IMG/VR virus record: IMGVR_UViG_3300017762_000010
Location: 1-45,877 of that record
Source of the DNA: a virus
Reading direction: 5' to 3' (one strand)
Length of the DNA stretch: 45,877 nt
The position numbers and the translations under genes were made by a program. The notes below the pieces were generated by a model, which made no database searches, was not told the origin of the DNA, and saw only the letters and a list, made by a program, of their open reading frames with translations. Below, piece after piece: positions 18,770 to 41,187 of this stretch; the first letter of the stretch is position 1, and the number at the start of each line of letters is the position of its first letter.

Positions 18770-19004
18770 AAATTTATATTTCGTACAACATGGCATGGCT
18801 TTAAAAGAGATCATGGATGGTGAAGAGATGTTAGATCCTGTAGAGATTATAAGACATGCTATATCAGATAAACCTAGGATAGGTGCTAATGGTACGCCAT
18901 ATATAGAAAAAGAGTTTTCAGTATTAAGAGGTAGTCGTAGAATTACAGCTGCATTGAAAAGAGGTTTTACACATATTGAAGGAGTAATTGTGAATGATGT
19001 ATAA
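18714..19004 (+). CDS. Small ParB/Srx-like domain protein
   Basis: 96 residues starting at an ATG with AAAGGAA five bases upstream, inside the gp16 3' end. Residues 63-95 (YIEKEFSVLRGSRRITAALK then RGFTHIEGVIVND) follow the ParB N-terminal pattern: a substrate strand, G-x-R-R-x-x-A-A helix, then the V-P-V-type strand. ParB-fold proteins bind DNA or hydrolyse nucleotides. The canonical catalytic surroundings are not complete at this length, so activity is uncertain. Between the two terminase genes, a role in packaging or its timing is conceivable (inference). It could also simply be a cargo gene. Confidence 0.55.
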   Translation: MKVLKAKTSHPKKTIFQIKNLYFVQHGMALKEIMDGEEMLDPVEIIRHAISDKPRIGANGTPYIEKEFSVLRGSRRITAALKRGFTHIEGVIVNDV

Positions 19005-19644
19005 AGAATATGAATTAGATGAAAGTACTTTTATGGGGGCATGGTATATGCCTGAGGATATTTGTGATGATATTATAGATACTTTTAAAAAAAATAATCA
19101 TATGTGGTCTAAAGGTGCTGTATTAGAAACAGCAGAAGCAAAAGGTGTAGGTGAATCTGATACAAAAGTAAAAGACAGTTTTGATATTGGTATTCTTGCA
19201 AAAGAAAGTTGGTACCCTTTCAATGCATATAAACACCATCTAAATGAAATATTTAAATTATATGAAAACAAGTATGAACCAATAAAAGGTTTAGAAGAGT
19301 ATGGTATTATAGAAAATTATAATATACAATATTATCCACCAGGTGGTGGTTTTAAAAAGTGGCATTCTGAAAGAACAAATGCAGTATCAGTAAATAGAGA
19401 ATTTGTTTTTATGACTTACTTAAATGATGTGCCAGCTGGTGGCACAGAGTTTGCATATCAAAAACTAACAACACCTGCTGAAAAAGGATTAACATTAATA
19501 TGGCCAGCAGCTTGGACGCATACACACAAAGGCGCCTTAGTATTAAAAGAAAAATATATAATAACAGGTTGGTGTGGTTATATAGAACCAAAACTAGTAG
19601 ATTTTTATATGAACAATTACGGAAGAGGAACAAGTAGTGAGTAG
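18994..19644 (+). CDS. 2OG-Fe(II) oxygenase-like protein (HxE type)
   Basis: 216 residues. The double-stranded beta-helix signature runs YYPPGGGFKKWHSER (metal ligands would be H124 and E126), MTYLNDVPAGGTEF, and GLTLIWPAAWTHTHKG (distal H176 or H178), with a basic residue at K187 for 2-oxoglutarate. The usual motif is HxD; here it is HxE, which some active members of the superfamily use. Target unknown; prolyl-hydroxylase-like protein modification is the usual guess. GGAG lies nine bases before the ATG pair. It starts inside the ParB-like gene and overlaps the gp17 GTG start by 8 bases, so it is part of the terminase operon. Confidence 0.75.
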   Translation: MMYKEYELDESTFMGAWYMPEDICDDIIDTFKKNNHMWSKGAVLETAEAKGVGESDTKVKDSFDIGILAKESWYPFNAYKHHLNEIFKLYENKYEPIKGLEEYGIIENYNIQYYPPGGGFKKWHSERTNAVSVNREFVFMTYLNDVPAGGTEFAYQKLTTPAEKGLTLIWPAAWTHTHKGALVLKEKYIITGWCGYIEPKLVDFYMNNYGRGTSSE

Positions 19645-21271
19645 CATAGACGCATACTTAGGTAATCCAAATTTAAAAAAGGTAAACACACCTGTTGAAT
19701 TTACACAAGAACAAATTGTTGAATATCAAAAGTGTGAAAAAGACCCTTTGTATTTTATGGAAAACTATGTACAAATAGTTTCACTTGACGATGGTTTAGT
19801 ACCTTTTAAAATGTATGACTTTCAAAGAGAGATTGTAAGAACAATACATGATAACAGATTTACTATATGTAAACTACCAAGACAATCAGGTAAATCAACT
19901 ACAACTATTTCTTATCTATTACACTATGCATTATTTAATCCCAATTCTAATATTGCCATACTTGCAAACAAAAGTTCTACTGCTAGAGATATCTTAGGTA
20001 GATTACAACTTGCTTATGAAAATTTACCGAAATGGTTACAACAAGGTATCATAAACTGGAACAAAGGTAATATAGAATTAGAAAATAAATCTACCATTGT
20101 GGCAGCTGCAACATCATCAAGTGCTATTCGAGGTGGTTCATTTAATATTATATTCTTAGATGAGTTTGCTTTCGTACCTGCTAACATAGCAGAAATGTTT
20201 TTTAGTTCAGTTTATCCTACAATCTCATCTGGTAAAAATACAAAAATGATTATTGTATCTACACCACATGGAATGAATATGTACTACAAATTATGGACAG
20301 ACGCTGTTAATAAACAAAACGATTATGTACCTATTGAAGTACATTGGTCAGAGGTACCTGGTAGAGATGAAGAATGGAAAGAAAAGACAATTAGAAACAC
20401 CTCTGCTGAGCAGTTTCAACAAGAGTTTGAATGTGAGTTTTTAGGTTCAGTCGATACATTAATTTCTCCTGCAAAAATCAAAGTTACTCCATATCTAACT
20501 GCCATTGAAAGTAAAAATGGTTTGAAGATGTTTAAGAAACCTCAGAAAGATAGATTATATGTTTGTACTGTTGACGTAGCTAGAGGTACAGAAAAAGATT
20601 ATTCAGCATTTATAATATTTGATTGTACAAAAATACCATACGAAGTAGTTTGCACATATAAAAATAATGAAATAAAACCTCATGTTTTTCCTAGTATAAT
20701 AGAACAAGTTTGTAAAGGTTATAATCACGCACATGTACTTTGTGAAGTCAATGATTTAGGACAGCAAATCGCTGATACGTTACACATGGAATTAGAATAT
20801 GATAATATCTTAATGACAACACAAAGAGGAAGAGCTGGTCAAATATTAGGTGCAATGTTTAGTGGTAGAGGTACATCATTAGGTGTTCGTATGACAAAAC
20901 AGATTAAGAAAATTGGGTGTGCTAGTATTAAGACACTTGTCGAAGCAGATAAAACTATCATAAATGACTTTCAGATCATAGAAGAAATGTCAACATTTAG
21001 TAGGCGTGGAAACTCATGGAGCGCTGAGGACGGGTGTAATGATGATCTTATGATGTGTTTAGTCATATTTGCTTGGTTGACGAACCAGCAGTACTTTAAA
21101 GAGTTATCTAATAGTAATATAAGAAGTCTATTATATGAAGAACAGCAAAATTTGATAGAACAGGATATGGCTCCTTTTGGTTTTGTAGATGATGGTACAC
21201 CGGATGAAGAAAAGGAAATTATTGATGAATATGGTACAGTTTGGCATCCTGTCGTAAGAAAAGGACATTAG
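19637..21271 (+). CDS. 17: Terminase large subunit gp17
   Basis: 544 residues, shorter than T4 gp17 (610), starting with GTG after AGAGGAA. The ATPase has Walker A PRQSGKST (81-88) and Walker B IIFLDEF (D175, E176), then the coupling motif STPHGM. The RNase-H-like nuclease has acidic residues at TVDVARG (D313), CEVND (E370) and CNDDLMM (D469/D470), corresponding to T4 D401, E458 and D542. It is the packaging motor and headful nuclease. All catalytic residues are present, so it should be active. The late octamer for gp18 follows directly. Confidence 0.96.
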   Translation: MSSIDAYLGNPNLKKVNTPVEFTQEQIVEYQKCEKDPLYFMENYVQIVSLDDGLVPFKMYDFQREIVRTIHDNRFTICKLPRQSGKSTTTISYLLHYALFNPNSNIAILANKSSTARDILGRLQLAYENLPKWLQQGIINWNKGNIELENKSTIVAAATSSSAIRGGSFNIIFLDEFAFVPANIAEMFFSSVYPTISSGKNTKMIIVSTPHGMNMYYKLWTDAVNKQNDYVPIEVHWSEVPGRDEEWKEKTIRNTSAEQFQQEFECEFLGSVDTLISPAKIKVTPYLTAIESKNGLKMFKKPQKDRLYVCTVDVARGTEKDYSAFIIFDCTKIPYEVVCTYKNNEIKPHVFPSIIEQVCKGYNHAHVLCEVNDLGQQIADTLHMELEYDNILMTTQRGRAGQILGAMFSGRGTSLGVRMTKQIKKIGCASIKTLVEADKTIINDFQIIEEMSTFSRRGNSWSAEDGCNDDLMMCLVIFAWLTNQQYFKELSNSNIRSLLYEEQQNLIEQDMAPFGFVDDGTPDEEKEIIDEYGTVWHPVVRKGH

Positions 21272-21284
21272 GGTTCCAGGTTAT

Positions 21285-21292
21285 TATAAATA
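21285..21292 (+). promoter_or_regulatory. T4-type late promoter (TATAAATA)
   Basis: Perfect octamer just after gene 17. Predicted start near 21298, giving a leader of about 85 bases to the gp18 ATG, far longer than the 11-23 bases at most other late promoters here. Confidence 0.75.
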
Positions 21293-21318
21293 TCAATGAA
21301 AACAATTTTAAATATGGG

Positions 21319-21361
21319 CGTATGAATAATACGAATATTTGAGGTAGATAATTAGCTAATT
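21319..21361 (+). promoter_or_regulatory. Structured gp18 leader: hairpin and palindrome
   Basis: CGTAT-GAATA-ATACG (21319-21333) can form a five-base-pair hairpin. AATTAGCTAATT (21350-21361) is a perfect 12-base palindrome. Both lie in the untranslated leader between the late promoter and the tail sheath gene, upstream of its AGAGGAG ribosome binding site. Function is not known; mRNA stability or translation control are possibilities. Confidence 0.4.
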
Positions 21362-21382
21362 TAAAAATAGAGGAGAAAACCT

Positions 21383-23287
21383 ATGGCATTTCAAGTATCA
21401 CCAGGCGTTCTCGTACAGGAAAGAGATTTAACAAGAATCATTCCTGCAGTATCGACATCAATAGGCGCTTTCGCTGGCGAGTTCAGACAAGGTCCAGTTG
21501 ATGAGGTAATATCAATCTCTAGTGAACAAGAGTTGGTCGCTACATTCGGAAAACCAGATTCAAGTAACTTTGAAACTTTTTTTTCGGCTGCAAACTTCCT
21601 ATCATACTCTAACGCACTAAGAGTTGTACGAGCAACCCAAACAGGTTTAGTCAATGCAAGTACCGGTGGAACTGGTATTTTAATTGAGAATACCGAAGAT
21701 TATCAAAACAATTACTCAGCAGGTCAAGGTGCTGTTGGTAATTTTGCAGCTAGAACAGGCGGAGCATGGGGAAACAATTTATTAGTTTCAACTTGTCCAA
21801 GTGCTACTGCATACGAAGAAGTAAATAAGACAACTGTAAATGACGCTTCAACTGCTGTTGGCGATACAACTTTAACACTTACAAGTGGAACAGGTTTTAA
21901 CGTTGGCGACATCATTAACTTTGCTGAAGTTGGTGGTCATCAATACAGAATTACAGTTGTAGATTCAAACAACATTACGTTTGTAAGAAAAGATACCGGT
22001 TCAGGTGGTTTACATACTGCTATTGCAAACGGTTCACAAGTAAGAAGAAGATGGAAGTATTACGACTTAGTCGATGGTGCACCAGGAACTTCAACATGGG
22101 CTTCAGAGAGAAGCGGAGTAAATGATGAAATACACGTTGTAGTCGTTGACGAAGATGGTGGTATTTCAGGTACTCCTGGCGAAGTAATTGAAACTTTTTC
22201 TAAGTTATCAAAAGCTTCAGACGCAAAATCACCACAAGGCGATAACAACTATTATCCAGATGTAATTTACAATAAATCAAATTACATTTATTGGATGGAT
22301 CACAACTCAGGTGGTACAAACTGGGGTACTGCAGCTGCAGGTATAACATTTACAGCTGTTAATACACCAACAAATGAAAGTATGTCTGCCGGTGCAAACG
22401 GTACAGCCGCTACAACTGCTCAACTAAAAACTGCTTACGAGAAGTTTTCAGATACAGAAACAGTTGACGTTGGTTTAATCATTGCAGGTAAAGGCGACGC
22501 TACTCACATTGATAACCTAATCACAGTTGCTGAAGATAGAAAAGACGCTGTTGTATTTGCTTCACCAGAAAGATCAGATGTTGTGAATGTTGCAAACTCA
22601 ACAACTCAGGCATCCAATGTTAAAGCTTTCTTTAACACGATCAGATCAAGTTCATATGTTGTATTTGATTCTGGTTACAAATATATGTACGACAGATATA
22701 ATGACGTTTACAGATATGTACCATTAAATGGTGATATCGCTGGTTTAGCTGCAAGAACTGATTTAATTGCAGACAGTTGGTTCTCACCTGCTGGACTAAA
22801 CAGAGGTATTGTCAGAGGTGCTGTCAAACTTGCGTTCAATCCATCAAAAGCACAAAGAGATGAATTGTATCCTGCTAGAATAAATCCTGTAGTAACTATG
22901 CCTGGTCAAGGTACAGTACTATTTGGAGACAAAACAGGTCTTTCAGCTCCTTCAGCATTTGACAGAATAAATGTAAGAAGATTGTTTATCGTTTTAGAAA
23001 AGGCAATTGCTACTGCTTCTAAGTTTCAACTTTTTGAGTTCAATGATGAATTTACAAGAGCAAACTTTAGAAACATTGTAGAACCTTTCCTAAGAGAAGT
23101 ACAAGGTAGACGTGGTATCACAGACTTTTTAGTAGTGTGTGATGAAACTAACAACACAGGCGAAGTAATTGATAGAAATGAATTTTTAGCGGAGATTTTT
23201 GTAAAACCTGCTAGAAGTATTAACTTTATCACATTAAAATTCGTTGCAACAAGAACTGGTGTGGCTTTCGAAGAAGTCGCTGGTTAA
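21383..23287 (+). CDS. 18: Tail sheath protein gp18
   Basis: 634 residues (T4 gp18: 659). QVSPGVLVQERDLTRIIPAV and STSIGAFAGEFRQGPVDEVI are the conserved N-terminal sheath signature. The C-terminal domain (FEFNDEFTRANFRNIVEPFL, REVQGRRGITDFLVVCDETN, then NFITLKFVATRTGV) is the conserved sheath core that contracts. The middle, about residues 130-330, is the variable surface-exposed insertion domain. It is probably among the most abundant virion proteins and has a strong AGAGGAG site and its own late promoter with a long leader. Confidence 0.95.
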   Translation: MAFQVSPGVLVQERDLTRIIPAVSTSIGAFAGEFRQGPVDEVISISSEQELVATFGKPDSSNFETFFSAANFLSYSNALRVVRATQTGLVNASTGGTGILIENTEDYQNNYSAGQGAVGNFAARTGGAWGNNLLVSTCPSATAYEEVNKTTVNDASTAVGDTTLTLTSGTGFNVGDIINFAEVGGHQYRITVVDSNNITFVRKDTGSGGLHTAIANGSQVRRRWKYYDLVDGAPGTSTWASERSGVNDEIHVVVVDEDGGISGTPGEVIETFSKLSKASDAKSPQGDNNYYPDVIYNKSNYIYWMDHNSGGTNWGTAAAGITFTAVNTPTNESMSAGANGTAATTAQLKTAYEKFSDTETVDVGLIIAGKGDATHIDNLITVAEDRKDAVVFASPERSDVVNVANSTTQASNVKAFFNTIRSSSYVVFDSGYKYMYDRYNDVYRYVPLNGDIAGLAARTDLIADSWFSPAGLNRGIVRGAVKLAFNPSKAQRDELYPARINPVVTMPGQGTVLFGDKTGLSAPSAFDRINVRRLFIVLEKAIATASKFQLFEFNDEFTRANFRNIVEPFLREVQGRRGITDFLVVCDETNNTGEVIDRNEFLAEIFVKPARSINFITLKFVATRTGVAFEEVAG

Positions 23288-23306
23288 GGATTAGAGGAGA
23301 AATAAA

Positions 23307-23834: not shown

Positions 23835-23867
23835 TAGTTGGATAAGTATTAATAGGAGAAATTAGTT

Positions 23868-25385: not shown

Positions 25386-25396
25386 GGAATATTAAA

Positions 25397-25708
25397 ATGA
25401 GTGAACAAGTAAAAAACTTTATAGATCAAGTAGCCGACGGAAACAATGTTGACGCTGGCGAAGCTTTTAAAGACGCATTAAGAGCTAAAATCGGAGACGC
25501 TTTAGATACAAAAAGAAAAGAATTAGCGAGTTCTTTATTTAATAAAGCAAATGCAACACCTGAGGCACAATCATTTAGTGATCCAAAACCAGAGATTGCT
25601 GATCCAGGAACTTTTAATCCTGATGGTTCTGTATCAACTGAAAAAGACGGTGAAGCACAAATAAATTTAGCACAGGTACCGACAGATGGCGACGCAGAGA
25701 GTAAGTGA
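25397..25708 (+). CDS. 67: Prohead core protein, gp67-like
   Basis: 103 residues, acidic overall. The N-terminus NFIDQVADGNNVDAGEAFKD ALR followed by IGDALDTKRKELASSLF resembles the short prohead core proteins next to gene 20 in cyanophages and T4 (gp67, 80 residues). Such proteins fill the scaffold and are degraded by the gp21 protease. The Pro/Asp/Glu-rich tail fits a disordered core protein. The assignment rests on position plus the pattern A-L-D-x-K-x-x-E-L-A-x-S-L. The last 23 bases overlap the next gene. Confidence 0.7.
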   Translation: MSEQVKNFIDQVADGNNVDAGEAFKDALRAKIGDALDTKRKELASSLFNKANATPEAQSFSDPKPEIADPGTFNPDGSVSTEKDGEAQINLAQVPTDGDAESK

Positions 25709-25931: not shown

Positions 25932-25932
25932 A

Positions 25933-30546: not shown

Positions 30547-30975
30547 ATGGATATAGAACAATTACAAACTGAAGCTGATAAAGATTTAAAAATTAACGAT
30601 ACAGAGTTAGATTTAGAATCATTAAAGACGCCTCAATTACACAACAAATATTTAAAACACCTAAACAAGTTTAAATTACTTCTTACAAAATCTCAAGCAG
30701 ACTTAAATACTTTAAGACGTGATAAATGGGAATATTATACAGGTAAAGCTGACGCTTCTGTATATGCACAAAAACCATTTGATCTAAAAATATTAAAAAC
30801 AGATATAGATAAGTACCTGAATGCTGATGAAGATTTACAAAGATTATCACAAAAAGTAGAATACTTAACAACAGTAATAGATTTCTTAGATAGAACTTTA
30901 CGTCAAATTACTAATAGAACATTTACTATAAAAAATGCAATCGATTGGCGAAAGTTTACTAGTGGTGCGATCTAA
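30547..30975 (+). CDS. uvsY: Recombination mediator UvsY
   Basis: 142 residues (T4 UvsY: 137). The pattern DLKINDTELDLESLKTPQLH, DKWEYYTGKADASVYA, the acidic helix DEDLQRLSQKVEYLTTVIDF and the end NRTFTIKNAIDWRKFTSGAI match UvsY. It loads the UvsX recombinase on gp32-covered single-stranded DNA. uvsX itself is not in the window. It has its own early-type promoter, and its stop overlaps the next start (TAATG), so the following oxygenase is coupled. Confidence 0.85.
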   Translation: MDIEQLQTEADKDLKINDTELDLESLKTPQLHNKYLKHLNKFKLLLTKSQADLNTLRRDKWEYYTGKADASVYAQKPFDLKILKTDIDKYLNADEDLQRLSQKVEYLTTVIDFLDRTLRQITNRTFTIKNAIDWRKFTSGAI

Positions 30976-31754
30976 TGTATACCAAGTACGATTACTGGAT
31001 ATTTCGTGGCTCTATTGATAAAGAAGTCTGTTCAAATATTATTGAAATAGGCAAATCACAAATAGAACAAGATAAAGAAAAAGGTATAGACGTAACAGGT
31101 CTTACTGGTGGTAATTCAGAAAAAACAGATGATGATGTTAGATTAGCGTTAGGTGAAAGAACTTTACAACAAGCTAAAAAAGAGTTTGGTCTAAACGATC
31201 AAAACATTTACGATAAAACTTATATTAGAGATAGTGAAATTACTTGGTTGAATAGAAACAAATATGATTGGATTTATTCTACAGTTGTTGAATATGTAAA
31301 CCAGGCAAACTTTGACGCAGGTTGGAGATATGATATAGATAGTTTTGATGATATACAATTTACAACTTATAGACCTGGTGGATTTTATGGTTGGCATCCA
31401 GATGGTGGTTCAGATCACTTTGCTAAATTAAAAAGAGATATTCCTGGTGTAACTACAAAAGAAGAAAAAGGTAGATTTACACATACACAATCAGCTGATA
31501 GAGTAGGTAAGATAAGAAAATTATCTGTAACTGTAAACTTAAATAGTGGTGATGATTATATGGGTGGTGATCTTAAATTTTCTTTAGATGAACACCAAAC
31601 AAAATATGATAGTAAAGAATTAATAATAGATGAGGCAAAACAACCCGGTACAGTTATTGTTTTTCCAAGTTATAAGTATCATTGTGTAACACCTATTACA
31701 CATGGTGTTAGATATTCACTTGTTTTGTGGATGTATGGAAGGCCGTTTAAATAA
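30975..31754 (+). CDS. 2OG-Fe(II) oxygenase, PKHD/YbiX-like
   Basis: 259 residues. Metal triad H141-x-D143 in YGWHPDGG and H236 in FPSYKYHCVTP, with R246 (THGVRYSLVLW) for 2-oxoglutarate. Between them RKLSVTVNLNSGDDYMGGDL is the PKHD-type hydroxylase pattern (PiuC/YbiX/prolyl hydroxylase). All catalytic residues are present. Substrate unknown. A long N-terminal region with EIGKSQIEQDKEKGID before the core. It is the first gene downstream of uvsY, coupled to it and to the following oxygenase gene, whose ATG overlaps its stop. Confidence 0.85.
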   Translation: MYTKYDYWIFRGSIDKEVCSNIIEIGKSQIEQDKEKGIDVTGLTGGNSEKTDDDVRLALGERTLQQAKKEFGLNDQNIYDKTYIRDSEITWLNRNKYDWIYSTVVEYVNQANFDAGWRYDIDSFDDIQFTTYRPGGFYGWHPDGGSDHFAKLKRDIPGVTTKEEKGRFTHTQSADRVGKIRKLSVTVNLNSGDDYMGGDLKFSLDEHQTKYDSKELIIDEAKQPGTVIVFPSYKYHCVTPITHGVRYSLVLWMYGRPFK

Positions 31755-32401
31755 TGAAGTCAACAGAATTTTTTGAAGCATATAGTTATCTACCTATAGA
31801 GGGTATCATTTCGCCAAATATGGCACACTTTCTATATAACTATGTTAAACAAAATGCATATAGATTATCTGTATTAGAAAATATGGATAAAGACATGCAA
31901 GATATAACACTAAGAGAATATCATGGAGTATTTGATGATACACAAGCTTTTGGTGATTTTAGTAAATATGGTGATCCTACATTTGATACTTTAATGTGTT
32001 ATATAAAACCTCAATTAGAAATATTAACAGATTTAAAACTAACTGAAACTTATTCTTATCATAGATTATATACTGAGGGTACAGAATTAGCTAGACATAA
32101 AGATAGACCAAGTTGTGAAATAAGTATGACATTATGTCTAGGATATGATATAATGAATTTGCCTAAAGATCAACAAGATTGGAACTGGCCTATGTGGGTA
32201 AATACACATGATGAAGATAGAGAAGTTTTTATGAAACCTGGAGACGGTATCATTTATAGAGGTTGTGATATTGAACATTGGCGTTTACCATTTACAGGTA
32301 AAAATCATGCACAAGTATTTTTACATTATAATAGTGAATTAAAAAACAAATTTGATAATAGACCATACGTAGGAATGCCTGGTTCCTATCGTTCTAAATA
32401 G
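31754..32401 (+). CDS. 2OG-Fe(II) oxygenase-like protein
   Basis: 215 residues. LARHKDRPSCEISMTLCLGY supplies H115-x-D117, and GDGIIYRGCDIEHWRLPFTG supplies the distal H175. The 2-oxoglutarate-binding basic residue is less clear (KNHAQVFLHY); Q187 lies where R or K is usual, so the co-substrate pocket may differ. This is a different subfamily from its neighbours. It overlaps the preceding oxygenase by one base and is followed by uvsW. The combination of adjacent but dissimilar oxygenases suggests separate targets. Confidence 0.7.
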   Translation: MKSTEFFEAYSYLPIEGIISPNMAHFLYNYVKQNAYRLSVLENMDKDMQDITLREYHGVFDDTQAFGDFSKYGDPTFDTLMCYIKPQLEILTDLKLTETYSYHRLYTEGTELARHKDRPSCEISMTLCLGYDIMNLPKDQQDWNWPMWVNTHDEDREVFMKPGDGIIYRGCDIEHWRLPFTGKNHAQVFLHYNSELKNKFDNRPYVGMPGSYRSK

Positions 32402-32408
32402 TTTTATG
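32395..32408 (+). promoter_or_regulatory. TAAATA-N5-ATG start motif (uvsW)
   Basis: TCTAAATA ends five bases before the uvsW ATG, one mismatch from the late octamer. There is no ribosome binding site in the intervening GTTTT. In T4, uvsW is a late gene, which fits a late promoter here. Confidence 0.4.
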
Positions 32409-33887
32409 ACGACAACAAGATATTTGATTATAGATAAAAAAGATGAAGTATATCTTAAAATAGAAGCTGACGCCGATATTAGAAGAGAACTTGGACAGTA
32501 TTTTACATTTGAAGTACCTGGTTTTAAATTTATGCCACAATATCGTAATAAGGTATGGGACGGCAAGATTAGATTATTTTCTTATGCAACTGGTCAAATT
32601 TATGTAGGTCTATATCCTTATATTGTTAATTGGTGTAACGAAAACAAAGTACAGATTGTTGATGGTACTAAGATAAAAGATAATGAAATAGATGAAAAGT
32701 ATATTGACAATTTTCTTAAAGCATTAAAAATACCAAAGATACAAATAAGAGATTATCAGAGAGAGGCATTTATACATGCTGTTAAAAAAGATAGAACTTT
32801 GTTGTTATCACCTACAGCTTCTGGTAAATCACTTATCGTTTATCTAATATTAATCTATAATCTACTAAGATTAAAAGATAAGAAGAATAATAAAGTATTA
32901 ATTATTGTACCTACAACATCTTTAGTAGAACAGTTATTTAAAGATTTCAAAGACTATGGTTATAATAGTGAAAGAAATGTACATAAAATATATCAAGGAC
33001 ATGGTAAAGATACAAACAAAAGAGTTGTTATATCTACATGGCAATCTATTTACAATCAACCTAAAAAATGGTTTGAACAATATGGTATGTTAATAGGTGA
33101 TGAGGCACACTTATTTAAAGCTATATCATTAACGAAGATACTAACAAAATTAGATAAATGTAAATATAAAATAGGTCTTACAGGTACTTTAGATGGTACA
33201 AAAACTCACAAATTAGTATTAGAAGGACTATTTGGTTCTGTAAATAAAGTTGTATCTACAAGTAAACTACAAGAAAATAAACAACTTGCAGATTTAAAAA
33301 TATTGTGTCTGATATTAGAATATGACGATATGGCTAGAAGTTTTTTAAAAGATAAAAACTACCAAGAAGAAATGGATTTTTTGGTATCTAATGAAAAGAG
33401 AAATAAATTTATTCGTAACTTGGCATCCAATTTGCAAGGTAACACATTGTGTTTATTTCAGTATGTTGAAAAACATGGTAAAGACTTATACGAATCAATA
33501 AAAGAAAAAGCAACAGATAAAAAAGTGTTTTACGTACACGGAGGAGTTGACGCAGATGAAAGAGAAAAGATTAGAGAAATTACGGAGAAAAGTGATAACG
33601 CCATTATTGTGGCTTCTTACGGCACTTTCTCAACCGGAATTAATATACGGAACTTGCATAACATTATTTTTGCTAGTCCTTCTAAATCTCGCATAAGAAA
33701 TTTACAATCTATTGGTCGTGGTTTAAGACTAAAGGATAACGATGGTACAGCTACATTATATGATATAGCTGACGATTTAACGTATAAAGAAAAAGAAAAT
33801 TATACGTTGGCACATTTTAGAGAAAGGATTAAGATATACGGTGGGGAAGAGTTTAATTACGAAATCCACAGCGTTGAACTTAAATAA
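32406..33887 (+). CDS. uvsW: DNA/RNA helicase UvsW
   Basis: 493 residues (T4 UvsW about 503). N-terminal domain: EVPGFKFMPQYRNKVWDGKI. Helicase motifs: Q-like IRDYQREAF, Walker A LLSPTASGKS (K141), Ia IIVPTTSLVEQ, II GDEAHLF (232-235), III LTGTLDG, V-VI YGTFSTGINIRN and QSIGRGLRL. It unwinds branched recombination intermediates and R-loops, shifting T4 replication from origin to recombination dependence. It sits downstream of uvsY, as in related phages. Confidence 0.95.
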   Translation: MTTTRYLIIDKKDEVYLKIEADADIRRELGQYFTFEVPGFKFMPQYRNKVWDGKIRLFSYATGQIYVGLYPYIVNWCNENKVQIVDGTKIKDNEIDEKYIDNFLKALKIPKIQIRDYQREAFIHAVKKDRTLLLSPTASGKSLIVYLILIYNLLRLKDKKNNKVLIIVPTTSLVEQLFKDFKDYGYNSERNVHKIYQGHGKDTNKRVVISTWQSIYNQPKKWFEQYGMLIGDEAHLFKAISLTKILTKLDKCKYKIGLTGTLDGTKTHKLVLEGLFGSVNKVVSTSKLQENKQLADLKILCLILEYDDMARSFLKDKNYQEEMDFLVSNEKRNKFIRNLASNLQGNTLCLFQYVEKHGKDLYESIKEKATDKKVFYVHGGVDADEREKIREITEKSDNAIIVASYGTFSTGINIRNLHNIIFASPSKSRIRNLQSIGRGLRLKDNDGTATLYDIADDLTYKEKENYTLAHFRERIKIYGGEEFNYEIHSVELK

Positions 33888-34496: not shown

Positions 34497-35039
34497 ATGG
34501 CACAAACAAAAAAGAAACCGGAACATTACGTAGATAATAAACAATTTCTACAAGCAATGATTCTTTATCGTAAATCTGTAAACAAGGCAAAAAGAGCTAA
34601 AGTTGAAAAGCCACCAGTTACAGATTATATCGGTGAATGTTTTTTAAAAATTGCAAACCACCTATCATATAGACCTAACTTTATAAACTATACATTTAGA
34701 GATGATATGATTAGTGATGGTATAGAAAACTGTTTACAATACTTAGATAATTTTAACCCAACAAAATCAAATAATCCATTTGCTTATTTTACACAAATCA
34801 TTTATTTTGCATTTATTAGAAGAATACAGAAAGAAAAGAAACAAGTAACAATCAAACAAAAACTAATAACAGAAGCAAACTATGATGATATGACATTGCA
34901 ACCTGGAGAAGATAGAGAATTTAAAAATCAATTTACAGAGTTTTTACAAAAGAATACAGTTGTAGATGAACCTGTTAAAAAAGAAAAGAAAAAACGAAAA
35001 GCAAGGAAAACAAAAAGTACTTTAGAATATTTTATGTGA
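34497..35039 (+). CDS. 55: Late transcription sigma factor gp55
   Basis: 180 residues (T4 gp55: 185). The core YIGECFLKIANHLSYRPNFI, RDDMISDGIENCLQYLDNFN and KSNNPFAYFTQIIYFAFIRR IQKEKK is the reduced sigma-2 region of T4-type gp55, which recognises TATAAATA. The C-terminus is Lys-rich (KKEKKKRKARKTKST) as in T4, where it contacts the polymerase and clamp. With the many late octamers in the window it supplies the matching factor. Own early-type promoter; the stop overlaps the next ATG. Confidence 0.93.
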   Translation: MAQTKKKPEHYVDNKQFLQAMILYRKSVNKAKRAKVEKPPVTDYIGECFLKIANHLSYRPNFINYTFRDDMISDGIENCLQYLDNFNPTKSNNPFAYFTQIIYFAFIRRIQKEKKQVTIKQKLITEANYDDMTLQPGEDREFKNQFTEFLQKNTVVDEPVKKEKKKRKARKTKSTLEYFM

Positions 35040-35620
35040 TGAAAACATTTATATTTCCAAGTGAAATATATGAGTTCAAGTTGAATGTGAATAATGAAGA
35101 ACTTGCACAACATATTTTACTATTAGAAAAAGAAACAGATACAATCAACCTATCAAATGTAGGTGGTTGGCAAAGTGATGATGAGTTTATACAATCTCAA
35201 CAAGCTGAAGAGGTAAAAGAAGAAATTGCCAATGCTGTTGTAGGTGTTTGTAATTCATTACCTTATAAAAAATCTGTTAAAGTAATTATGGATAATGGTT
35301 GGGCAAATGTCAACCGTTACAAAGATTATAATAATACACATGAACACCCACATTGTATTTGGTCGTGTGTTTATTATGTACAAGCTAATGATGATACAGG
35401 CAATCTAACATTTTTAGATCCTAAGGTGAAAAGAACTATGTATAATGATGAGATTTATTTAGAACAACTATCAAATCCAGCAAGTGCATTTACCTATCAA
35501 TGTATACCTCAAACAGGTAAACTAATTGTATTTCCTTCTTACTTATCACATAGAGTAGAACCTAACCCCACAGCTCATCCTAGAATTAGTATTAGTTGTA
35601 ACTTTTATTTAGAATTATGA
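35039..35620 (+). CDS. 2OG-Fe(II) oxygenase, TIGR02466-like (1)
   Basis: 193 residues from the ATG that overlaps the gp55 stop (GTG at 35036 is also in frame but ahead of the overlap). NNTHEHPHCIWSCVYYV supplies H101 and H103 (HP), and GKLIVFPSYLSHRVEPNPTA supplies H171, with R182 (PRISISCNFYL). This is the small TIGR02466/2OG-FeII_Oxy_5 family of phages and marine bacteria. Substrate unknown. It sits between the late sigma factor and gp47. Three other genes of the same family lie within the next 6 kb. Confidence 0.8.
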   Translation: MKTFIFPSEIYEFKLNVNNEELAQHILLLEKETDTINLSNVGGWQSDDEFIQSQQAEEVKEEIANAVVGVCNSLPYKKSVKVIMDNGWANVNRYKDYNNTHEHPHCIWSCVYYVQANDDTGNLTFLDPKVKRTMYNDEIYLEQLSNPASAFTYQCIPQTGKLIVFPSYLSHRVEPNPTAHPRISISCNFYLEL

Positions 35621-36663
35621 AAATAGCTTTATTAAACGATACCCATTTCGGTTGCAGAAACGATAGTCCTGCCTTTATAGAATATCAAAACAAATTTTAT
35701 AATGACACCTTTTTTCCTTATTTAATAGAAAATAATATTGACACCTTAGTACACTTAGGTGATGTTGTTGATAGAAGAAAGTTTATTAACCACAACACAG
35801 CACACAATTTTAAGAAAGTATTTTGGGATAGATTAGAAGAGTTAGGTATTGATACACATATTATTATAGGTAACCACGACACCTATTACAAAAATACAAA
35901 TGAAGTAAACGCATTACAGAATTTAAATATTAATAAGAACGCTAAGATTTATACAGCTGCGACAGATGTAAACATTGGTGGTTTAGATATACTATTTTTA
36001 CCATGGATTTGTGATGATAATTTAGAAGATAGTTTGTTATCTATTGACAATACATCAGCTGAGATAGTTATGGGACATTTAGAAGTAAAAGGTTTTGAAA
36101 TGCATAAAGGTGTATTCAATGACCATGGTTTAGAGAAAGATCAATTTACAAAGTTTGAAAAGGTTATGTCTGGTCACTTTCATAAGAAGTCAGATGATGG
36201 TCGTATTCATTATTTGGGAACACAATATGAAATTACATGGTCAGATTATAAATGCCCAAAAGGCTTTCACATTTTTGACACAGGTACAAGAGAGCTAGAA
36301 AGAGTATCAAACCCTTTAAGAATGTTTAAAAAGTTTTACTATGATGATGTAGGTAAAGATTATACAAATATAGACCTATCTGAATATGATAATTGTTTTG
36401 TTAAGATATTTGTACAAAATAAAAATGATGATGATATGTATAACAACTTATTAGAAAAATTTTATAACACTATTAACGTACATGAATTACAAATTGTAGA
36501 TACACCAAGTGATTTGACCACAAGTGTGAGAGAAGATATATTGGATCACGGTGAAGATACTTTAACCTTTTTAGGTAATTATATCGACCAAATACAAACA
36601 GATGTAAATAAAGACAAACTAAAGAAGTTTGCAAAAGAGTTATATACGGAGGCAAGTGAATAA
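35617..36663 (+). CDS. 47: Recombination endonuclease subunit gp47
   Basis: 348 residues (T4 gp47: 339). Mre11/SbcD-type metallophosphoesterase motifs: LNDTHFG (D8, H10), LVHLGDVVDRR (D49), IIIGNHDTYY (N86, H87), VMGHLE and MSGHFHKKS. With gp46 it processes double-strand ends for recombination-dependent replication. The TGAAA overlap couples it to the preceding oxygenase. An oxygenase gene is inserted between gp47 and gp46. Confidence 0.95.
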   Translation: MKIALLNDTHFGCRNDSPAFIEYQNKFYNDTFFPYLIENNIDTLVHLGDVVDRRKFINHNTAHNFKKVFWDRLEELGIDTHIIIGNHDTYYKNTNEVNALQNLNINKNAKIYTAATDVNIGGLDILFLPWICDDNLEDSLLSIDNTSAEIVMGHLEVKGFEMHKGVFNDHGLEKDQFTKFEKVMSGHFHKKSDDGRIHYLGTQYEITWSDYKCPKGFHIFDTGTRELERVSNPLRMFKKFYYDDVGKDYTNIDLSEYDNCFVKIFVQNKNDDDMYNNLLEKFYNTINVHELQIVDTPSDLTTSVREDILDHGEDTLTFLGNYIDQIQTDVNKDKLKKFAKELYTEASE

Positions 36664-37259
36664 TGGAATACTTTAATTGGGGACCTTTAGTTGGTATCTT
36701 TAACGTAGAACAAAGTTTTTGTGATGAAATGTTACGTAGAGGTTACCTTACAAAAGAACCAGCACATCAACAACTAGCTGGTCATTTTAAAACAGAATAT
36801 CTTTTTAATAAAGAAGATATGGGTTATTTCGTAGAACAAACACAAGAGTATTTCAATGAATATATGGATAGTTCTAGTAATCATTTTAATTCATATAAGC
36901 CAAAGAATTTGCATTTAGAAAGTTTATGGATTAATTATATGGGACCTAATAATTTTAATCCAGTACATACACATACGGAAGATTTATCTTTTGTACTATA
37001 CTTAGATGTACCAAAAGAATTAGAAGAAGAAAATAAAAATGAAAGAAATAACGATCAATACGGTGGTCCAGGTGCTATCACATTTATGTGGGGAGAAGGC
37101 AGTACTAATGATGTCATTGTAGCCAACAATAGATTACCTAAAACAGGAGAGTTTTATATCTTTCCTACACATTTAAGACATATGGTTTATCCTTTTAAAT
37201 CAGATGTAACAAGAATATCTGTGTCAGGCAACTTAGGGTATGTAAATGATAGCATTTAA
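36663..37259 (+). CDS. 2OG-Fe(II) oxygenase, TIGR02466-like (2)
   Basis: 198 residues. PVHTHTEDLSFVLYLDVP supplies H102 and H104; GEFYIFPTHLRHMVYPFKSD supplies the distal H170 or H173; R184 is in VTRISVSGNL. A 25-residue charged insert (KELEEENKNERNNDQYGG) separates the strands. Its start overlaps the gp47 stop (TAATG), and its 3' end overlaps the gp46 start by 14 bases, so it is embedded in the 47-46 operon. Target unknown. Confidence 0.8.
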   Translation: MEYFNWGPLVGIFNVEQSFCDEMLRRGYLTKEPAHQQLAGHFKTEYLFNKEDMGYFVEQTQEYFNEYMDSSSNHFNSYKPKNLHLESLWINYMGPNNFNPVHTHTEDLSFVLYLDVPKELEEENKNERNNDQYGGPGAITFMWGEGSTNDVIVANNRLPKTGEFYIFPTHLRHMVYPFKSDVTRISVSGNLGYVNDSI

Positions 37260-38961
37260 AAAAATAAGATATAAAAACTTTTTATCAACAGGTAATACAC
37301 CTATTGAAATAAACTTTGATGAAGCTCAAACAACTTTAATTGTAGGTAATAATGGTAGTGGTAAGTCAACACTATTAGACGCATTATGTTTTGTATTATT
37401 TAACAAACCATTTAGAATTATTAAGAAAGAACAAATGGTAAACACTATTAATAGTAGTGACGCCATGGTCGAAGTATTTTTTGATGTAGGTACTAAACAG
37501 TATCAAATACGAAGAGGTATCAAACCAAACATATTTGAAATCTTTTGTAATGGTGAACTTATCAACCAAGAAGCTAATAATATAGATTATCAAAAATACT
37601 TAGAACAAAATATAATGAAACTAAATTATAGATCATTTATTCAGGTGGTAATACTAGGTTCATCATCATACGAACCATTTATGAAGATGAAACCACGTTA
37701 TAGACGTGAAGTTGTTGAAGAGATACTTGATATTAGAGTTTTTGGTCTTATGGACTTAATATTACGATCTCAACAGAGTGATCTACAGAAAAAGTTAACG
37801 GAGGTGCGTCACCAATGCGATTTGATACGTACCAAATACGAAACAGAAGCAAAGTATCTAAAGTCATTGGAAGCACAAGGAAATGACAACCAGGCGGTTA
37901 AACAAAATAAACTAGAGGATAACACTAGAAAAAGTGCAGAATTTGAAACAAAACTACAAAACATCAATGAAGAGATTGCCGTAGCTACAAATCAACTAGT
38001 AGATGAACCTAAAACAAAAACCAATCTATCTAAATTAGAAAAGTTAGAAGCAAAGATAGATAATAATATTATATCACATAAAAAGACATTGGCATTTTTC
38101 AAAGACAATGATACTTGTCCTGTATGTACACAACATATTGATGAAGAGTTTAAAGAAAATAAATGTTCACATACTGAAACAAAGGTAAATGAACTACAAG
38201 GTGGTTATGAAAAGTTATTAGAAGAAATATCTAAACATGAAACTAAACTATCTGAGTTTGGTGTTATATCAAAAAAGATACAAGACATGAATATGGATGT
38301 TGCCAGAATTAAAACATCATTGGAAGGTATTAAATCTCAGAGTGACCATATACAAGAAGAACTAAAACTAGTAAATAGAAGTAAAGTAGATACTGATAGT
38401 ATTCACAAAGAACTAGAACAAATGATGTTATCACTAAAAGAAGAAGAACAAAATTTAGATAAAGTAAAAGAAGAAAAAGGTTATGTAGATGTATTAAGAG
38501 AGATACTAAATGACAAAGGTGCTAAATCTAAGATTATAAAGAAGTATGTACCTATAATGAATAACTTAATTAACAAGTATCTACAAGCTATGGATTTCTT
38601 TATATCATTTAATTTAGATGAAGAGTTTAACGAAACAGTAAAAAGTAGATTTAGAGATACCTTTAATTACAATAACTTTAGTGAGGGTGAAAAGATGAGA
38701 ATAGACCTTGCATTATTATTTACTTGGAGAGATATTGCAAGATTAAAGAATAGTACAAACACCAACTTATTAATACTTGATGAAATATTTGATAGTAGTT
38801 TAGATGGTCAAGGAACAGATGATTTTTTTAAGATTATAAATTCTTTAGAAAAAGAAAATATCTTTATTATATCACACAAAGGAGATATACTGTTTGATAA
38901 ATTTAAGAATGTAGTTAAGTTTGAAAAATACAAAAACTTTACAAGGTTACAAAATGCATAA
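37246..38961 (+). CDS. 46: Recombination endonuclease subunit gp46
   Basis: 571 residues (T4 gp46: 560). Rad50/SbcC-type ATPase: Walker A IVGNNGSGKST (34-42), coiled coil about 180-450 with zinc hook CPVC (C291, C294), ABC signature NFSEGEKMRIDLALL, and Walker B LLILDEIFDSSLDG. Partner of gp47. All catalytic elements are present, so it should be functional. It starts inside the preceding oxygenase gene and its end overlaps the next oxygenase by eight bases. Confidence 0.95.
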   Translation: MIAFKKIRYKNFLSTGNTPIEINFDEAQTTLIVGNNGSGKSTLLDALCFVLFNKPFRIIKKEQMVNTINSSDAMVEVFFDVGTKQYQIRRGIKPNIFEIFCNGELINQEANNIDYQKYLEQNIMKLNYRSFIQVVILGSSSYEPFMKMKPRYRREVVEEILDIRVFGLMDLILRSQQSDLQKKLTEVRHQCDLIRTKYETEAKYLKSLEAQGNDNQAVKQNKLEDNTRKSAEFETKLQNINEEIAVATNQLVDEPKTKTNLSKLEKLEAKIDNNIISHKKTLAFFKDNDTCPVCTQHIDEEFKENKCSHTETKVNELQGGYEKLLEEISKHETKLSEFGVISKKIQDMNMDVARIKTSLEGIKSQSDHIQEELKLVNRSKVDTDSIHKELEQMMLSLKEEEQNLDKVKEEKGYVDVLREILNDKGAKSKIIKKYVPIMNNLINKYLQAMDFFISFNLDEEFNETVKSRFRDTFNYNNFSEGEKMRIDLALLFTWRDIARLKNSTNTNLLILDEIFDSSLDGQGTDDFFKIINSLEKENIFIISHKGDILFDKFKNVVKFEKYKNFTRLQNA

Positions 38962-39553
38962 CGAAATACATTTACTATTTGGTACACCTGTTTATATAAG
39001 TGGTGATTCGTATAATCTACCTGAGGAAGACTTGTTTCATGTTAATACACAAGAAACTTATCCAAATGAGGGTGGTAATGCAACATCAAAAAATACTTAT
39101 ATACTAGAACAGTTTCCAGATTTAAAAGAATGGATACTAGATCAAGTAGAACTTTATAAAACAGAGGTTTTAAAAATACAAGATGAAGTGTTTTTTGGCA
39201 TAACTCAAAGCTGGTTAAATTACAATAATAAAAAATCATCTCACCATACACACAATCATAGAAATAGTGCTATATCTGGTGTATTCTATATTGAGGGTAC
39301 AACACCAATAAGATTTGAAAGAAAAGAACATTACTTTCCACAATTTGATTTTAATTATAGTGAATATACTCCTTATAATTCTAGTCAGTATGATATACAG
39401 GTAAGTCCTGGTAAGTTATTTTTATTTCCCTCTACATTAAATCATAGTGTATTGAGTAATGAAGATGATAAAGTAAGAATTAGTTTGGCGTTTAATACGT
39501 GGATGAAAGGAACAATAGGTGATACAGAGTGCAATACCAAATTGAAGTTATAG
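38954..39553 (+). CDS. 2OG-Fe(II) oxygenase, TIGR02466-like (3)
   Basis: 199 residues. The start is the ATG at 38954 with AAGG seven bases upstream; an upstream in-frame TTG at 38921 would lie deep in gp46. SSHHTHNHRNSAISGVFYI contains H98, H100, H102; SPGKLFLFPSTLNHSVLSNE the distal H164; KVRISLAFNTW the R175. This is the TIGR02466 pattern and closely parallels the protein at 40567 (both end RxSLAFN-W-G). The two may have arisen by duplication. It overlaps the next gene by 25 bases. Confidence 0.8.
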   Translation: MHNEIHLLFGTPVYISGDSYNLPEEDLFHVNTQETYPNEGGNATSKNTYILEQFPDLKEWILDQVELYKTEVLKIQDEVFFGITQSWLNYNNKKSSHHTHNHRNSAISGVFYIEGTTPIRFERKEHYFPQFDFNYSEYTPYNSSQYDIQVSPGKLFLFPSTLNHSVLSNEDDKVRISLAFNTWMKGTIGDTECNTKLKL

Positions 39554-40035
39554 ATAATTTTTTAGAAGAGAACTTAGCTCAGTACGTAGAGAGAAAAGTA
39601 GATAATTCACATTTTCCTTGGTACTTAATAAAGAATGTAAACAAAGAATCAACACCAAATGATTATCAGTTTATGCATACTATAGTTGATTATGGTAATG
39701 AAAATAGTCATTATTTTAAGATAATAGAACCACTATTGACAAATTTAAAGAAACCAGTTAAAATAGTAAGAGCAAGAGTTAATTTATTTTGTAAGGCAGA
39801 TACAAGTAAAGGTTTAGGGTTTCATCAGGATATTATGGATGATGAAGACCACAAAACTTTATTATATTACATAGAAGATAGTAATGGTTATACAGAGTTT
39901 AATGACGGACAAAAAGTAGAAAGTAAAAGAAACAGAGCAGTAATATTTGACGCACACCTTATACATCAAACAGTTACACAAACAGACAAACTTTTTAGAA
40001 CAAATATAAATATTAATTATACAGAGGAAGTATGA
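39529..40035 (+). CDS. 2OG-Fe(II) oxygenase-like protein (compact)
   Basis: 168 residues with GTG start preceded by AGGTGA at six bases' distance. GLGFHQDIMDDEDHKTLLYY supplies H99-x-D101, NRAVIFDAHLIHQTVTQTDK supplies H146, and LFRTNININ supplies R157. All four active-site positions are present in a short protein, and the fold is of the JBP/AlkB-like or prolyl-hydroxylase type by pattern only. Start lies in the end of the preceding oxygenase. Substrate unknown. Confidence 0.7.
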   Translation: MQYQIEVIDNFLEENLAQYVERKVDNSHFPWYLIKNVNKESTPNDYQFMHTIVDYGNENSHYFKIIEPLLTNLKKPVKIVRARVNLFCKADTSKGLGFHQDIMDDEDHKTLLYYIEDSNGYTEFNDGQKVESKRNRAVIFDAHLIHQTVTQTDKLFRTNININYTEEV

Positions 40036-40589
40036 AAGAACTAAAACTAATACCACCAACAGACGCAAGAGTCAAAAACGCAATCGCACCTTTCACAGAC
40101 GAAATGTTAAAAGATGAAGGATTTGAAAATAGAAAAGAATTAGCTGACGCTATGTTTGACACTATGCAAAAAAGTGGTGGCATAGGTCTAACTTGTAATC
40201 AAGTTGGTTTACCTTTTAACTTCTTTGTCTTAGGTGGACATCCTGAGATAGAAAAGGGCATGAGATTAGATTGTTTTAATCCTATGATTATTTCATCTGG
40301 CGAGGATAAAGTTATGATGAAAGAGGGTTGTCTAACTTATCCATTTGTTTTCTTAAACGTTAAACGACCACGTAAGGTAGTTGTTAAATATGAAGACGTT
40401 GATGGCAATTTACAAGAAGGCCATTTAGACGGACTAATGAGTAGAATATTCCAACATGAATATGACCATATATTAGGAAGAACTTTTTTAGAACATGCAA
40501 GTAAATTAAAAGTAGATAGAGCATTTGCAAAAGCTAAGAAAGAGTTTGAAAGATGGACTAAAAACAATGCCTCAGTACAAAATACATAA
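40032..40589 (+). CDS. def: Peptide deformylase
   Basis: 185 residues. Motif I GGIGLTCNQVG (50-59), motif II EGCLTYP (98-104), motif III QHEYDH (141-146) supply the metal ligands Cys100, H142 and H146 and catalytic E143. Compared with bacterial enzymes the motif I A-A is replaced by T-C, and motif II ends in T instead of S. It removes the N-formyl group from new proteins. Phage-encoded deformylases are known from cyanophages. It overlaps the preceding oxygenase (ATGA) and the next oxygenase by 23 bases. Confidence 0.95.
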   Translation: MKELKLIPPTDARVKNAIAPFTDEMLKDEGFENRKELADAMFDTMQKSGGIGLTCNQVGLPFNFFVLGGHPEIEKGMRLDCFNPMIISSGEDKVMMKEGCLTYPFVFLNVKRPRKVVVKYEDVDGNLQEGHLDGLMSRIFQHEYDHILGRTFLEHASKLKVDRAFAKAKKEFERWTKNNASVQNT

Positions 40590-41187
40590 TTTATTTCCTA
40601 CAGTATTATATGAAGACCATATAGACCCACATCCAGATTGGATAGAAACAGCTAAAGGCTTAGATTATGAACGTATGGACTCAGATAATGGTTTCTATAC
40701 AAAAGATAAGTATATTTTAAATAATCAAAATTTTACAGATTTAAGAACTTCTATAGTAGAAAATGTTGAAAGATATTGTTACGATTATTTCAAAGTAAAA
40801 AGAAATGCTAAAATTGATGTAACAAATTCTTGGATAAACATACATAAACCAAAAGATTGGGGTCAAAGTCATATACATGGCAACTCAATATTAAGTGGTG
40901 TTTATTATTTAAATACGCCATCCGAATCAGGTGATATTAGTTTTAATAGACCAATGACATCTTCTATGCCTTTTAATTCTATGTTTCATATGGATTGGTC
41001 AGAGGTTAACATGCAAAATTGTGATAATTATAAACTAACACCTAGTCAAGGAATGATAGTGATATTTCCTAGTTGGTTACAACATGCAATAACACGTAAT
41101 AATACACAAGAAGATAGATATTCTCTAGCTTTTAATGTATGGTTTAGAGGTAATATAGGTGAAGACGAACACGAAGTATCCTTATAA
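40567..41187 (+). CDS. 2OG-Fe(II) oxygenase, TIGR02466-like (4)
   Basis: 206 residues from the ATG at 40567; upstream in-frame TTG (40525) lies inside def. LFPTVLYEDHI is a typical family start. GQSHIHGNSILSGVYYL gives H102 and H104; GMIVIFPSWLQHAITRNNTQ gives H173; DRYSLAFNVWFRG gives R184. It closely resembles the protein at 38954. A promoter for the next gene follows. It closes the run of oxygenase genes. Confidence 0.82.
   Translation: MPQYKIHNLFPTVLYEDHIDPHPDWIETAKGLDYERMDSDNGFYTKDKYILNNQNFTDLRTSIVENVERYCYDYFKVKRNAKIDVTNSWINIHKPKDWGQSHIHGNSILSGVYYLNTPSESGDISFNRPMTSSMPFNSMFHMDWSEVNMQNCDNYKLTPSQGMIVIFPSWLQHAITRNNTQEDRYSLAFNVWFRGNIGEDEHEVSL

What the first reader, a model, noticed from the sequence alone, without database searches (positions are those of the whole stretch)
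18994..41187. Eight 2OG-Fe(II) oxygenase-like genes in one phage window
Genes at 18994, 30975, 31754, 35039, 36663, 38954, 39529 and 40567 all show a proximal H-containing metal motif and a distal FPS-x-x-x-H or equivalent, and most also have a C-terminal basic residue. They belong to at least four subfamilies, so this is not simple tandem duplication. Single oxygenases in cyanophages are well known. Eight in about 22 kb, seven of them interleaved with recombination, late-sigma and deformylase genes, suggests a modification programme (of virion, ribosome or polymerase proteins, or of DNA) that has not been described as a unit.
Basis: partly seen in the sequence, partly recalled or inferred. 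Interest (0 to 1): 0.75.

Follow-up and report, generated by a model that had tools for sequence, protein, structure and literature searches.

The report
Eight oxygenase genes: ordinary in these phages
A virus of ocean bacteria carries eight real oxygenase-type genes fitted tightly between its core genes, but other marine viruses of this group carry as many, so the crowd is ordinary; one of the eight shows that a phage gene often labelled "ferrochelatase" is really an oxygenase.

Summary
All eight genes are there and each matches an oxygenase profile family, in four lineages: PF13640/phrog_61 (P1, P2), phrog_2954 (P3), PF13759/phrog_81 (P4, P5, P6, P8) and phrog_274 (P7). The two doubtful ones, P3 and P7, fold confidently as 2OG-oxygenase double-stranded beta-helices. 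P4, P5, P6 and P8 carry HxH...H in place of the canonical HxD/E...H, so their 2OG dependence is less sure.

The window is a fragment of a T4-like pelagimyophage near Pelagibacter phage Mosig. Seven or eight such genes within 22 kb occur in eight of the marine T4-like genomes I counted, and published genomes hold up to 24 (PMC9602691). There is no fixed programme: the genes fill variable slots between conserved backbone genes, full in some relatives and empty in others, and orthologues of several sit elsewhere in Mosig and HTVC008M.

Useful and apparently new: P3 belongs to the family deposited as phage "ferrochelatase", and P7 to that deposited as "DNA endonuclease V". Neither name survives testing. 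Two papers build host-metabolism claims on "ferrochelatase" genes.

The parts
18994..19644 (+). P1: P4H-like 2OG oxygenase, slot between the 96-aa gene after TerS and TerL
   Evidence: PF13640 2.7e-6, phrog_61 7.6e-34; HSE...H...K; overlaps both neighbours
30975..31754 (+). P2: PKHD/YbiX-like 2OG oxygenase, uvsY-uvsW slot
   Evidence: PF13640 4.9e-11, partial YbiX-type hits far below cut-off; HPD...H...R invariant in 140 relatives
31754..32401 (+). P3: family named 'ferrochelatase' (phrog_2954); here a 2OG oxygenase-fold protein, uvsY-uvsW slot
   Evidence: phrog_2954 7.5e-43; AF2 pLDDT 92.9, Foldseek P4H/PHD; H115, D117, H175 invariant
35039..35620 (+). P4: PF13759 oxygenase-type gene, gp55-gp47 slot
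   Evidence: PF13759 9.4e-23, TIGR02466 1.1e-30; HEH...H
36663..37259 (+). P5: PF13759 oxygenase-type gene, gp47-gp46 slot; slot-specific lineage
   Evidence: PF13759 3e-14; 15 gp47-gp46 occupants form one clade, support 100/98
38954..39553 (+). P6: PF13759 oxygenase-type gene, gp46-PDF slot
   Evidence: PF13759 3.1e-19; also a sub-threshold cupin match 8e-4
39529..40035 (+). P7: family named 'DNA endonuclease V' (phrog_274); here a 2OG oxygenase-fold protein, gp46-PDF slot
   Evidence: phrog_274 6e-44; AF2 pLDDT 92.6, Foldseek AsqJ/PHD2; HQD...H...R
40567..41187 (+). P8: PF13759 oxygenase-type gene, PDF-DUF4338 slot
   Evidence: PF13759 2.8e-24; solved relatives 3bvc and 2rg4
30547..30975 (+). 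uvsY (backbone)
   Evidence: matches the gene annotated UvsY in Mosig and HTVC008M
32406..33887 (+). uvsW helicase (backbone)
34497..35039 (+). gp55 late sigma factor (backbone)
35617..36663 (+). gp47 recombination nuclease (backbone, anchor of the survey)
37246..38961 (+). gp46 recombination nuclease (backbone)
40032..40589 (+). peptide deformylase (backbone)
   Evidence: PF01327 1.9e-34
19637..21271 (+). terminase large subunit (backbone)

Best explanation
These are eight separate accessory ('moron' or auxiliary) genes of the 2OG-Fe(II) oxygenase fold, of at least four lineages. A T4-like pelagimyophage carries them in cassette slots between its core late and recombination genes. Shown: fold (P3, P7) or family match (the rest), motifs, lineages, selection, slots that are full or empty in different relatives, and a fit so close that 12 of 14 borders overlap the neighbouring gene. 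Inferred: overlap couples their translation to the core genes, so they are made with recombination and late-transcription proteins. Each enzyme then uses Fe(II), O2 and (at least the HxD/E members) 2-oxoglutarate to hydroxylate its own substrate. My best guess for substrates is amino-acid side chains in proteins or peptides, or small molecules derived from amino acids, rather than DNA. For P3 this rests on its nearest solved folds (EF-Tu prolyl hydroxylase, PHD) and on cellular relatives inside peptide-synthetase clusters. The eight do not form one fixed programme.
For: Profiles. AF2 and Foldseek for P3 and P7. Triads. Slots: uvsY-uvsW filled by oxygenases in 39 of 51 loci, gp55-gp47 12 of 85, gp47-gp46 26 of 76, gp46-PDF 16 of 49, PDF-DUF4338 7 of 39; Melnitz, L018 and L078 have none in the stretch examined. 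After grouping gp47 at 90% identity (27 clusters), inserts of 100 aa or more in those five junctions are 50 oxygenase against 11 other, while two outer junctions (gp23-gp3, DUF4338-peptidase) hold 0 against 26. Slot state changes on the gp47 tree: at least 8 for gp47-gp46, 12 for uvsY-uvsW. Orthologues relocated in Mosig and HTVC008M. Border overlap 12/14 against 7/34 for other borders. dN/dS 0.11-0.40. P3 relatives between NRPS/PKS modules in Brasilonema and beside NRPS genes in Rhizonema.
Against: No substrate is shown. Slot conservation of P5 across distant pelagimyophages (one clade) could mean a real tie to gp46/gp47. PF13759 proteins have His where the canonical triad has Asp/Glu, so they may not be ordinary 2OG oxygenases. 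The cellular P3 relatives are few (19 loci, many of them from marine MAGs and possibly phage DNA). Loci were the 80 best by gp47 similarity, so they sample near kin. The slot census used ORF calls and home-made profiles.
Confidence: 0.72

Rival explanations
1. DNA repair or DNA modification set: the oxygenases act on phage or host DNA (AlkB-like or TET/JBP-like), which is why they sit next to uvsY, uvsW, gp46 and gp47.
For: Position beside recombination genes; proposed before for cyanophages because the genes lie next to uvsX, uvsY and uvsW (PMC9146016; PMC3037559).
Against: No AlkB or TET/JBP model appears among the Pfam hits at E up to 1 for any of the eight. The same lineages sit in other places in other phages. 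The recombination genes are complete without them in Melnitz. Nearest folds of P3 and P7 include peptide and small-molecule hydroxylases.
Confidence: 0.1
2. 2-oxoglutarate metabolic lever: the many oxygenases jointly consume 2OG and shift host nitrogen or energy metabolism (2OG to succinate).
For: Proposed for cyanophages (PMC3037559).
Against: Diverse conserved family-specific residues, such as the 36 invariant positions of the P3 family, imply specific substrates rather than uncoupled 2OG turnover. PF13759 members may not use 2OG canonically.
Confidence: 0.06
3. One co-ordinated modification programme of virion, ribosome or polymerase proteins.
For: Shared operon, tight overlaps with late and recombination genes, deformylase nearby; EF-Tu prolyl hydroxylase is the top fold match of P3.
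Against: Slots fill and empty separately. Relatives with the same backbone lack all of them (L018, L078, Melnitz).
Confidence: 0.1
4. P3 is a genuine ferrochelatase and P7 a genuine T4-type endonuclease V (DenV), as deposited.
For: Record annotations and PHROG names.
Against: No ferrochelatase or DenV family match at E up to 1 in Pfam for P3 and P7 or for the deposited 'ferrochelatases' of Mosig and HTVC008M and the P-RSM4 'denV'; none in NCBIfam. HTVC023P's 'ferrochelatase' has no Pfam hit at 0.01 and no NCBIfam hit. Foldseek gives 2OG oxygenases only in the 50 listed. phrog_274 finds nothing in T4, which by established knowledge encodes the real DenV.
Confidence: 0.02

Closest known systems
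Synechococcus phage S-SCSM1, 24 2OG-Fe(II) oxygenase genes (PMC9602691)
   Same: Same superfamily set (PF13640, PF13759 among four subfamilies) in a T4-like marine phage; 22 found with my method
   Different: Cyanobacterial host; its uvsY-to-gp46 stretch has no oxygenase slot filled
Pelagibacter phages Mosig and HTVC008M
   Same: Same backbone and same oxygenase lineages, 12 and 20 genes; P5 orthologue in the same gp47-gp46 slot
   Different: P2-P3 and the P4 and P8 relatives lie elsewhere; uvsY-uvsW holds a PF13759 gene (Mosig) or a non-oxygenase (HTVC008M)
HTVC023P-type pelagiphages: eight distinct 2OG genes with 'ferrochelatase' partner (PMC9599517)
   Same: Several oxygenases beside a P3-family gene
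   Different: Podovirus genomes; the partner was read as a ferrochelatase, which the tests here do not support
Pseudomonas putida P4H (EF-Tu prolyl hydroxylase, 4j25/4iw3) and PHD2
   Same: Nearest solved folds of P3 (TM 0.62 by query); HxD...H triad as in the superfamily
   Different: About 14% identity; substrate unknown for P3
PF13759/TIGR02466 proteins 3bvc and 2rg4
   Same: Sequence relatives of P8 with solved structures, same HxH...H pattern in the aligned stretch
   Different: Uncharacterised, function unknown

Membership tests
2OG-Fe(II) oxygenase superfamily (P1, P2, P3, P7) | Double-stranded beta-helix fold | tested here: met
   AF2 and Foldseek for P3 and P7; PF13640 above cut-off for P1 and P2. 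P1 and P2 were not folded
2OG-Fe(II) oxygenase superfamily (P1, P2, P3, P7) | HxD/E...H metal triad | tested here: met
   HSE, HPD, HKD, HQD plus distal His; both His conserved 99-100% in all four groups and the Asp 100% in P2, P3, P7; the Glu of P1 82% in 22 rows
2OG-Fe(II) oxygenase superfamily (P1, P2, P3, P7) | Basic residue for 2OG after the distal His | tested here: inconclusive
   P1 K187 82%, P2 R246 100%, P7 R157 98%; in P3 the equivalent residue is unclear (R177 or H191)
PF13759 family (P4, P5, P6, P8) | Family match above curated cut-off | tested here: met
   All four above Pfam cut-off
2OG-Fe(II) oxygenase superfamily (P4, P5, P6, P8) | Canonical carboxylate (D/E) in the HxD/E...H triad | tested here: not met
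   HxH...H; second His in 175 of 177 sequences. They are filed as PF13759 family members, not as proven 2OG enzymes
2OG-Fe(II) oxygenase superfamily (all eight) | 2OG- and O2-dependent oxidation | not testable with these tools
   Needs enzymology
Ferrochelatase (for P3) | Ferrochelatase profile or chelatase fold | tested here: not met
   No such hit in Pfam or NCBIfam; fold matches are 2OG oxygenases
T4 DenV / endonuclease V (for P7) | Homology to the T4 enzyme | tested here: not met
   phrog_274 finds nothing in T4; no pyrimidine-dimer glycosylase Pfam hit; fold is 2OG oxygenase
AlkB or TET/JBP DNA oxygenases | Match to those Pfam families | tested here: not met
   None among hits at E up to 1 for the eight

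The most novel reading that the evidence does not exclude
The junctions of the uvsY-uvsW-gp55-gp47-gp46-deformylase stretch are dedicated oxygenase slots: selection keeps refilling them with this enzyme class (and with a tryptophan halogenase at gp55-gp47) because the products act on the recombination or late-transcription machinery made from the same message, for example P5 on gp46/gp47. PF13759 would be a three-histidine oxygenase class of its own.
Probability: 0.1. Interest if true: 0.7.

Novelty: new member of a known kind. Interest (0 to 1): 0.33.

Why it matters
The count itself is not news. Two by-products matter. First, the phage 'ferrochelatase' family (phrog_2954, T4-GC 615) is an oxygenase-fold family. 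PMC9599517 reads such genes as iron/heme partners of the oxygenases, and PMC11561400 reports seasonal enrichment of phrog2954 as ferrochelatases; under the new reading these are oxygenases next to oxygenases. Second, the slots give a clean natural comparison (same backbone, slot full or empty) for finding out what phage oxygenases do.

Tried and rejected
Chance motif matches: rejected, since all eight hit family profiles and P3 and P7 fold as the superfamily. Tandem duplication: rejected, four lineages and low identity. A ninth gene in the window: not found with the four profiles used. Foreign base composition of the oxygenases: GC and GC3 are like the neighbours. One literature search failed on term syntax and one on term length; one returned nothing. 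A literature search for PF13759 gave two papers, neither on phages judging by title and abstract.
Full report
WHAT THE WINDOW IS. The 45,877-base contig is a virus record. Its terminase-to-protease stretch is 75.6% identical over 91% to Pelagibacter phage Mosig EXVC030M, with HTVC008M next. It is therefore a fragment of a T4-like pelagimyophage; the two relatives are 141 and 147 kb long, so most of the genome is not seen.

THE EIGHT GENES ARE REAL. All eight ORFs exist at the stated places. Profile searches put them in four lineages: P1 (18994) and P2 (30975) in PF13640/phrog_61; P3 (31754) in phrog_2954; P4 (35039), P5 (36663), P6 (38954) and P8 (40567) in PF13759/phrog_81/TIGR02466; P7 (39529) in phrog_274. 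P3 and P7 had no convincing Pfam hit, so the two structure jobs went to them. Both models are confident (pLDDT 92.9 and 92.6). Foldseek against the PDB returned only 2OG-oxygenase-fold entries in the 50 listed: Pseudomonas putida prolyl hydroxylase first for P3 (E 4.6e-10), AsqJ, EasH and PHD2 for P7.

METAL MOTIFS. P1, P2, P3 and P7 have HxD/E plus a distal His. These residues are invariant or nearly so in alignments of 132, 140 and 111 sequences for P7, P2 and P3; P1 has only 22 rows and its Glu is at 82%. P4, P5, P6 and P8 differ: HxH...H, with each His at about 98-99% in 177 sequences. The position that is Asp/Glu in the canonical triad is thus His, and P6 also has a sub-threshold cupin match (E 8e-4). 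I file these four as PF13759 proteins and leave open whether they use 2-oxoglutarate in the normal way. Solved relatives 3bvc and 2rg4 exist but are uncharacterised.

SUCH NUMBERS ARE ROUTINE. Merged profile hits in 14 phage genomes: HTVC008M 20, Mosig 12, S-SCSM1 22, P-SSM2 23, S-SSM7 20, Syn9 12, P-RSM4 11, S-TIM4 11, S-PM2 8, P-HM2 7, AG-345-L05 4, Melnitz 2, KVP40 2, T4 0. The densest 22.2 kb holds 7 or 8 in eight of them. S-SCSM1 was published with 24 in four Pfam groups (PMC9602691), close to my 22. Others report nine in S-SZBM1 (PMC9146016), eight non-orthologous in HTVC023P-type pelagiphages (PMC9599517), and numerous in 14 of 16 cyanophages (PMC3037559).

SLOTS, NOT A FIXED UNIT. Around gp47 in 80 IMG/VR relatives plus reference phages the backbone uvsY-uvsW-(mau)-gp55-gp47-gp46-PDF-DUF4338 is largely constant, and each junction is mostly either closed or holds one or two oxygenases. 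Oxygenase filling: uvsY-uvsW 39 of 51, gp55-gp47 12 of 85, gp47-gp46 26 of 76, gp46-PDF 16 of 49, PDF-DUF4338 7 of 39. Methylophilales phage Melnitz and contigs L018 and L078 have none in the stretch examined; L013, L014 and L015, near kin of the window, have eight, including one more between mau and gp55. Grouping gp47 at 90% identity leaves 27 clusters. Inserts of at least 100 aa in the five junctions are then 50 oxygenase to 11 other, of which four are about 510 aa; two such proteins tested are tryptophan halogenases. Two outer junctions, gp23-gp3 and DUF4338-peptidase, hold 0 oxygenase to 26 other. On the gp47 tree the gp47-gp46 slot changes state at least 8 times by strongly supported branches, and the uvsY-uvsW slot 12 times.

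RESIDENTS AND MOVERS. In the PF13759 tree 15 of 16 gp47-gp46 occupants form one clade (100/98), including window P5, Mosig and HTVC008M, so P5 is a resident of its slot. P7-type genes also recur at gp46-PDF. P4 and P8, in contrast, have their nearest named relatives at other addresses in Mosig and HTVC008M, and the P2-P3 pair lies next to the tail-fibre genes in Mosig.

FIT AND SELECTION. Twelve of 14 oxygenase gene borders overlap their neighbour by 1-25 bases against 7 of 34 other borders (Fisher p 4e-5). One window was counted and the borders are not independent draws. Composition matches the neighbours. dN/dS against near relatives is 0.11-0.40 for P2-P8 (0.03-0.12 for most backbone genes, 0.21 for DUF4338): the genes are under constraint but evolve faster.

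THE 'FERROCHELATASE' AND 'ENDONUCLEASE V' NAMES. P3 relatives occur in 156 phage records and are mostly named ferrochelatase in the rows listed, including HTVC023P gp67, P-RSM4 and S-PM2 (T4-GC 615). None of those tested hits a ferrochelatase model. All those aligned keep H115, D117 and H175, and the fold is a 2OG oxygenase. P7 relatives are often named DenV or DNA endonuclease V, yet phrog_274 finds nothing in T4 itself. Searches found no paper in the held library that corrects these names, though most subscription papers are not held. PMC9599517 infers an iron/heme partnership from 'ferrochelatases' always adjacent to oxygenases, and PMC11561400 reports phrog2954 as a seasonally enriched ferrochelatase; both readings need revision if this is right.

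WHAT THEY MAY DO. A genome search with the P3 family found 19 cellular or MAG loci. In Brasilonema the gene lies between NRPS and PKS modules and in Rhizonema beside NRPS genes; in a Mucilaginibacter MAG it lies near an ABC transporter, a second oxygenase, a weak HPr-kinase-like match and a sulfotransferase. With the P4H/PHD fold matches this points to hydroxylation of amino-acid or peptidyl substrates. That is inference; no substrate is shown.

VERDICT. Observation confirmed. As a headline it is ordinary for marine T4-like phages. The corrected gene names and the slot architecture are the useful results.

Noticed in passing
window 41225-42523: The gene called DUF4338 matches DruA of the Druantia anti-phage system (Pfam PF14236 4.4e-24; PADLOC DruA 2.7e-20). 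Its profile matches 43 ORFs in the fetched loci, usually next to the deformylase. A defence-protein homologue as a conserved phage gene is odd.
   Followed up: partly
L026:1628-3166, L052:951-2492, L053:2514-4031, L055:1957-3522, L056, L057, L059 (gp55-gp47 junction): The other occupant of the gp55-gp47 slot is a protein of about 510 aa; the two tested (L026, L055) are tryptophan halogenases (PF04820, E about 1e-101 or better).
   Followed up: partly
window 35039-35620, 36663-37259, 38954-39553, 40567-41187: PF13759 proteins have an HxH...H triad instead of HxD/E...H in about 98% of 177 sequences; whether they use 2OG at all is open.
   Followed up: partly
L251:39632-40230 (HTVC008M 139632-140230): A PF13759-type gene is split into two ORFs, which looks like a broken oxygenase.
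   Followed up: no
L055:7482-8111, L087:8630-9169 (gp46-PDF junction): DUF6445 (PF20043) proteins occupy the same slot as P7-type genes and are weakly related to them, suggesting that DUF6445 is an oxygenase-fold family.
   Followed up: no
L279:3809-4477, L277:3761-4480, L282:3929-4486: Cellular relatives of P3 lie next to NRPS or peptide-tailoring-like genes in cyanobacteria and a Mucilaginibacter MAG.
   Followed up: partly
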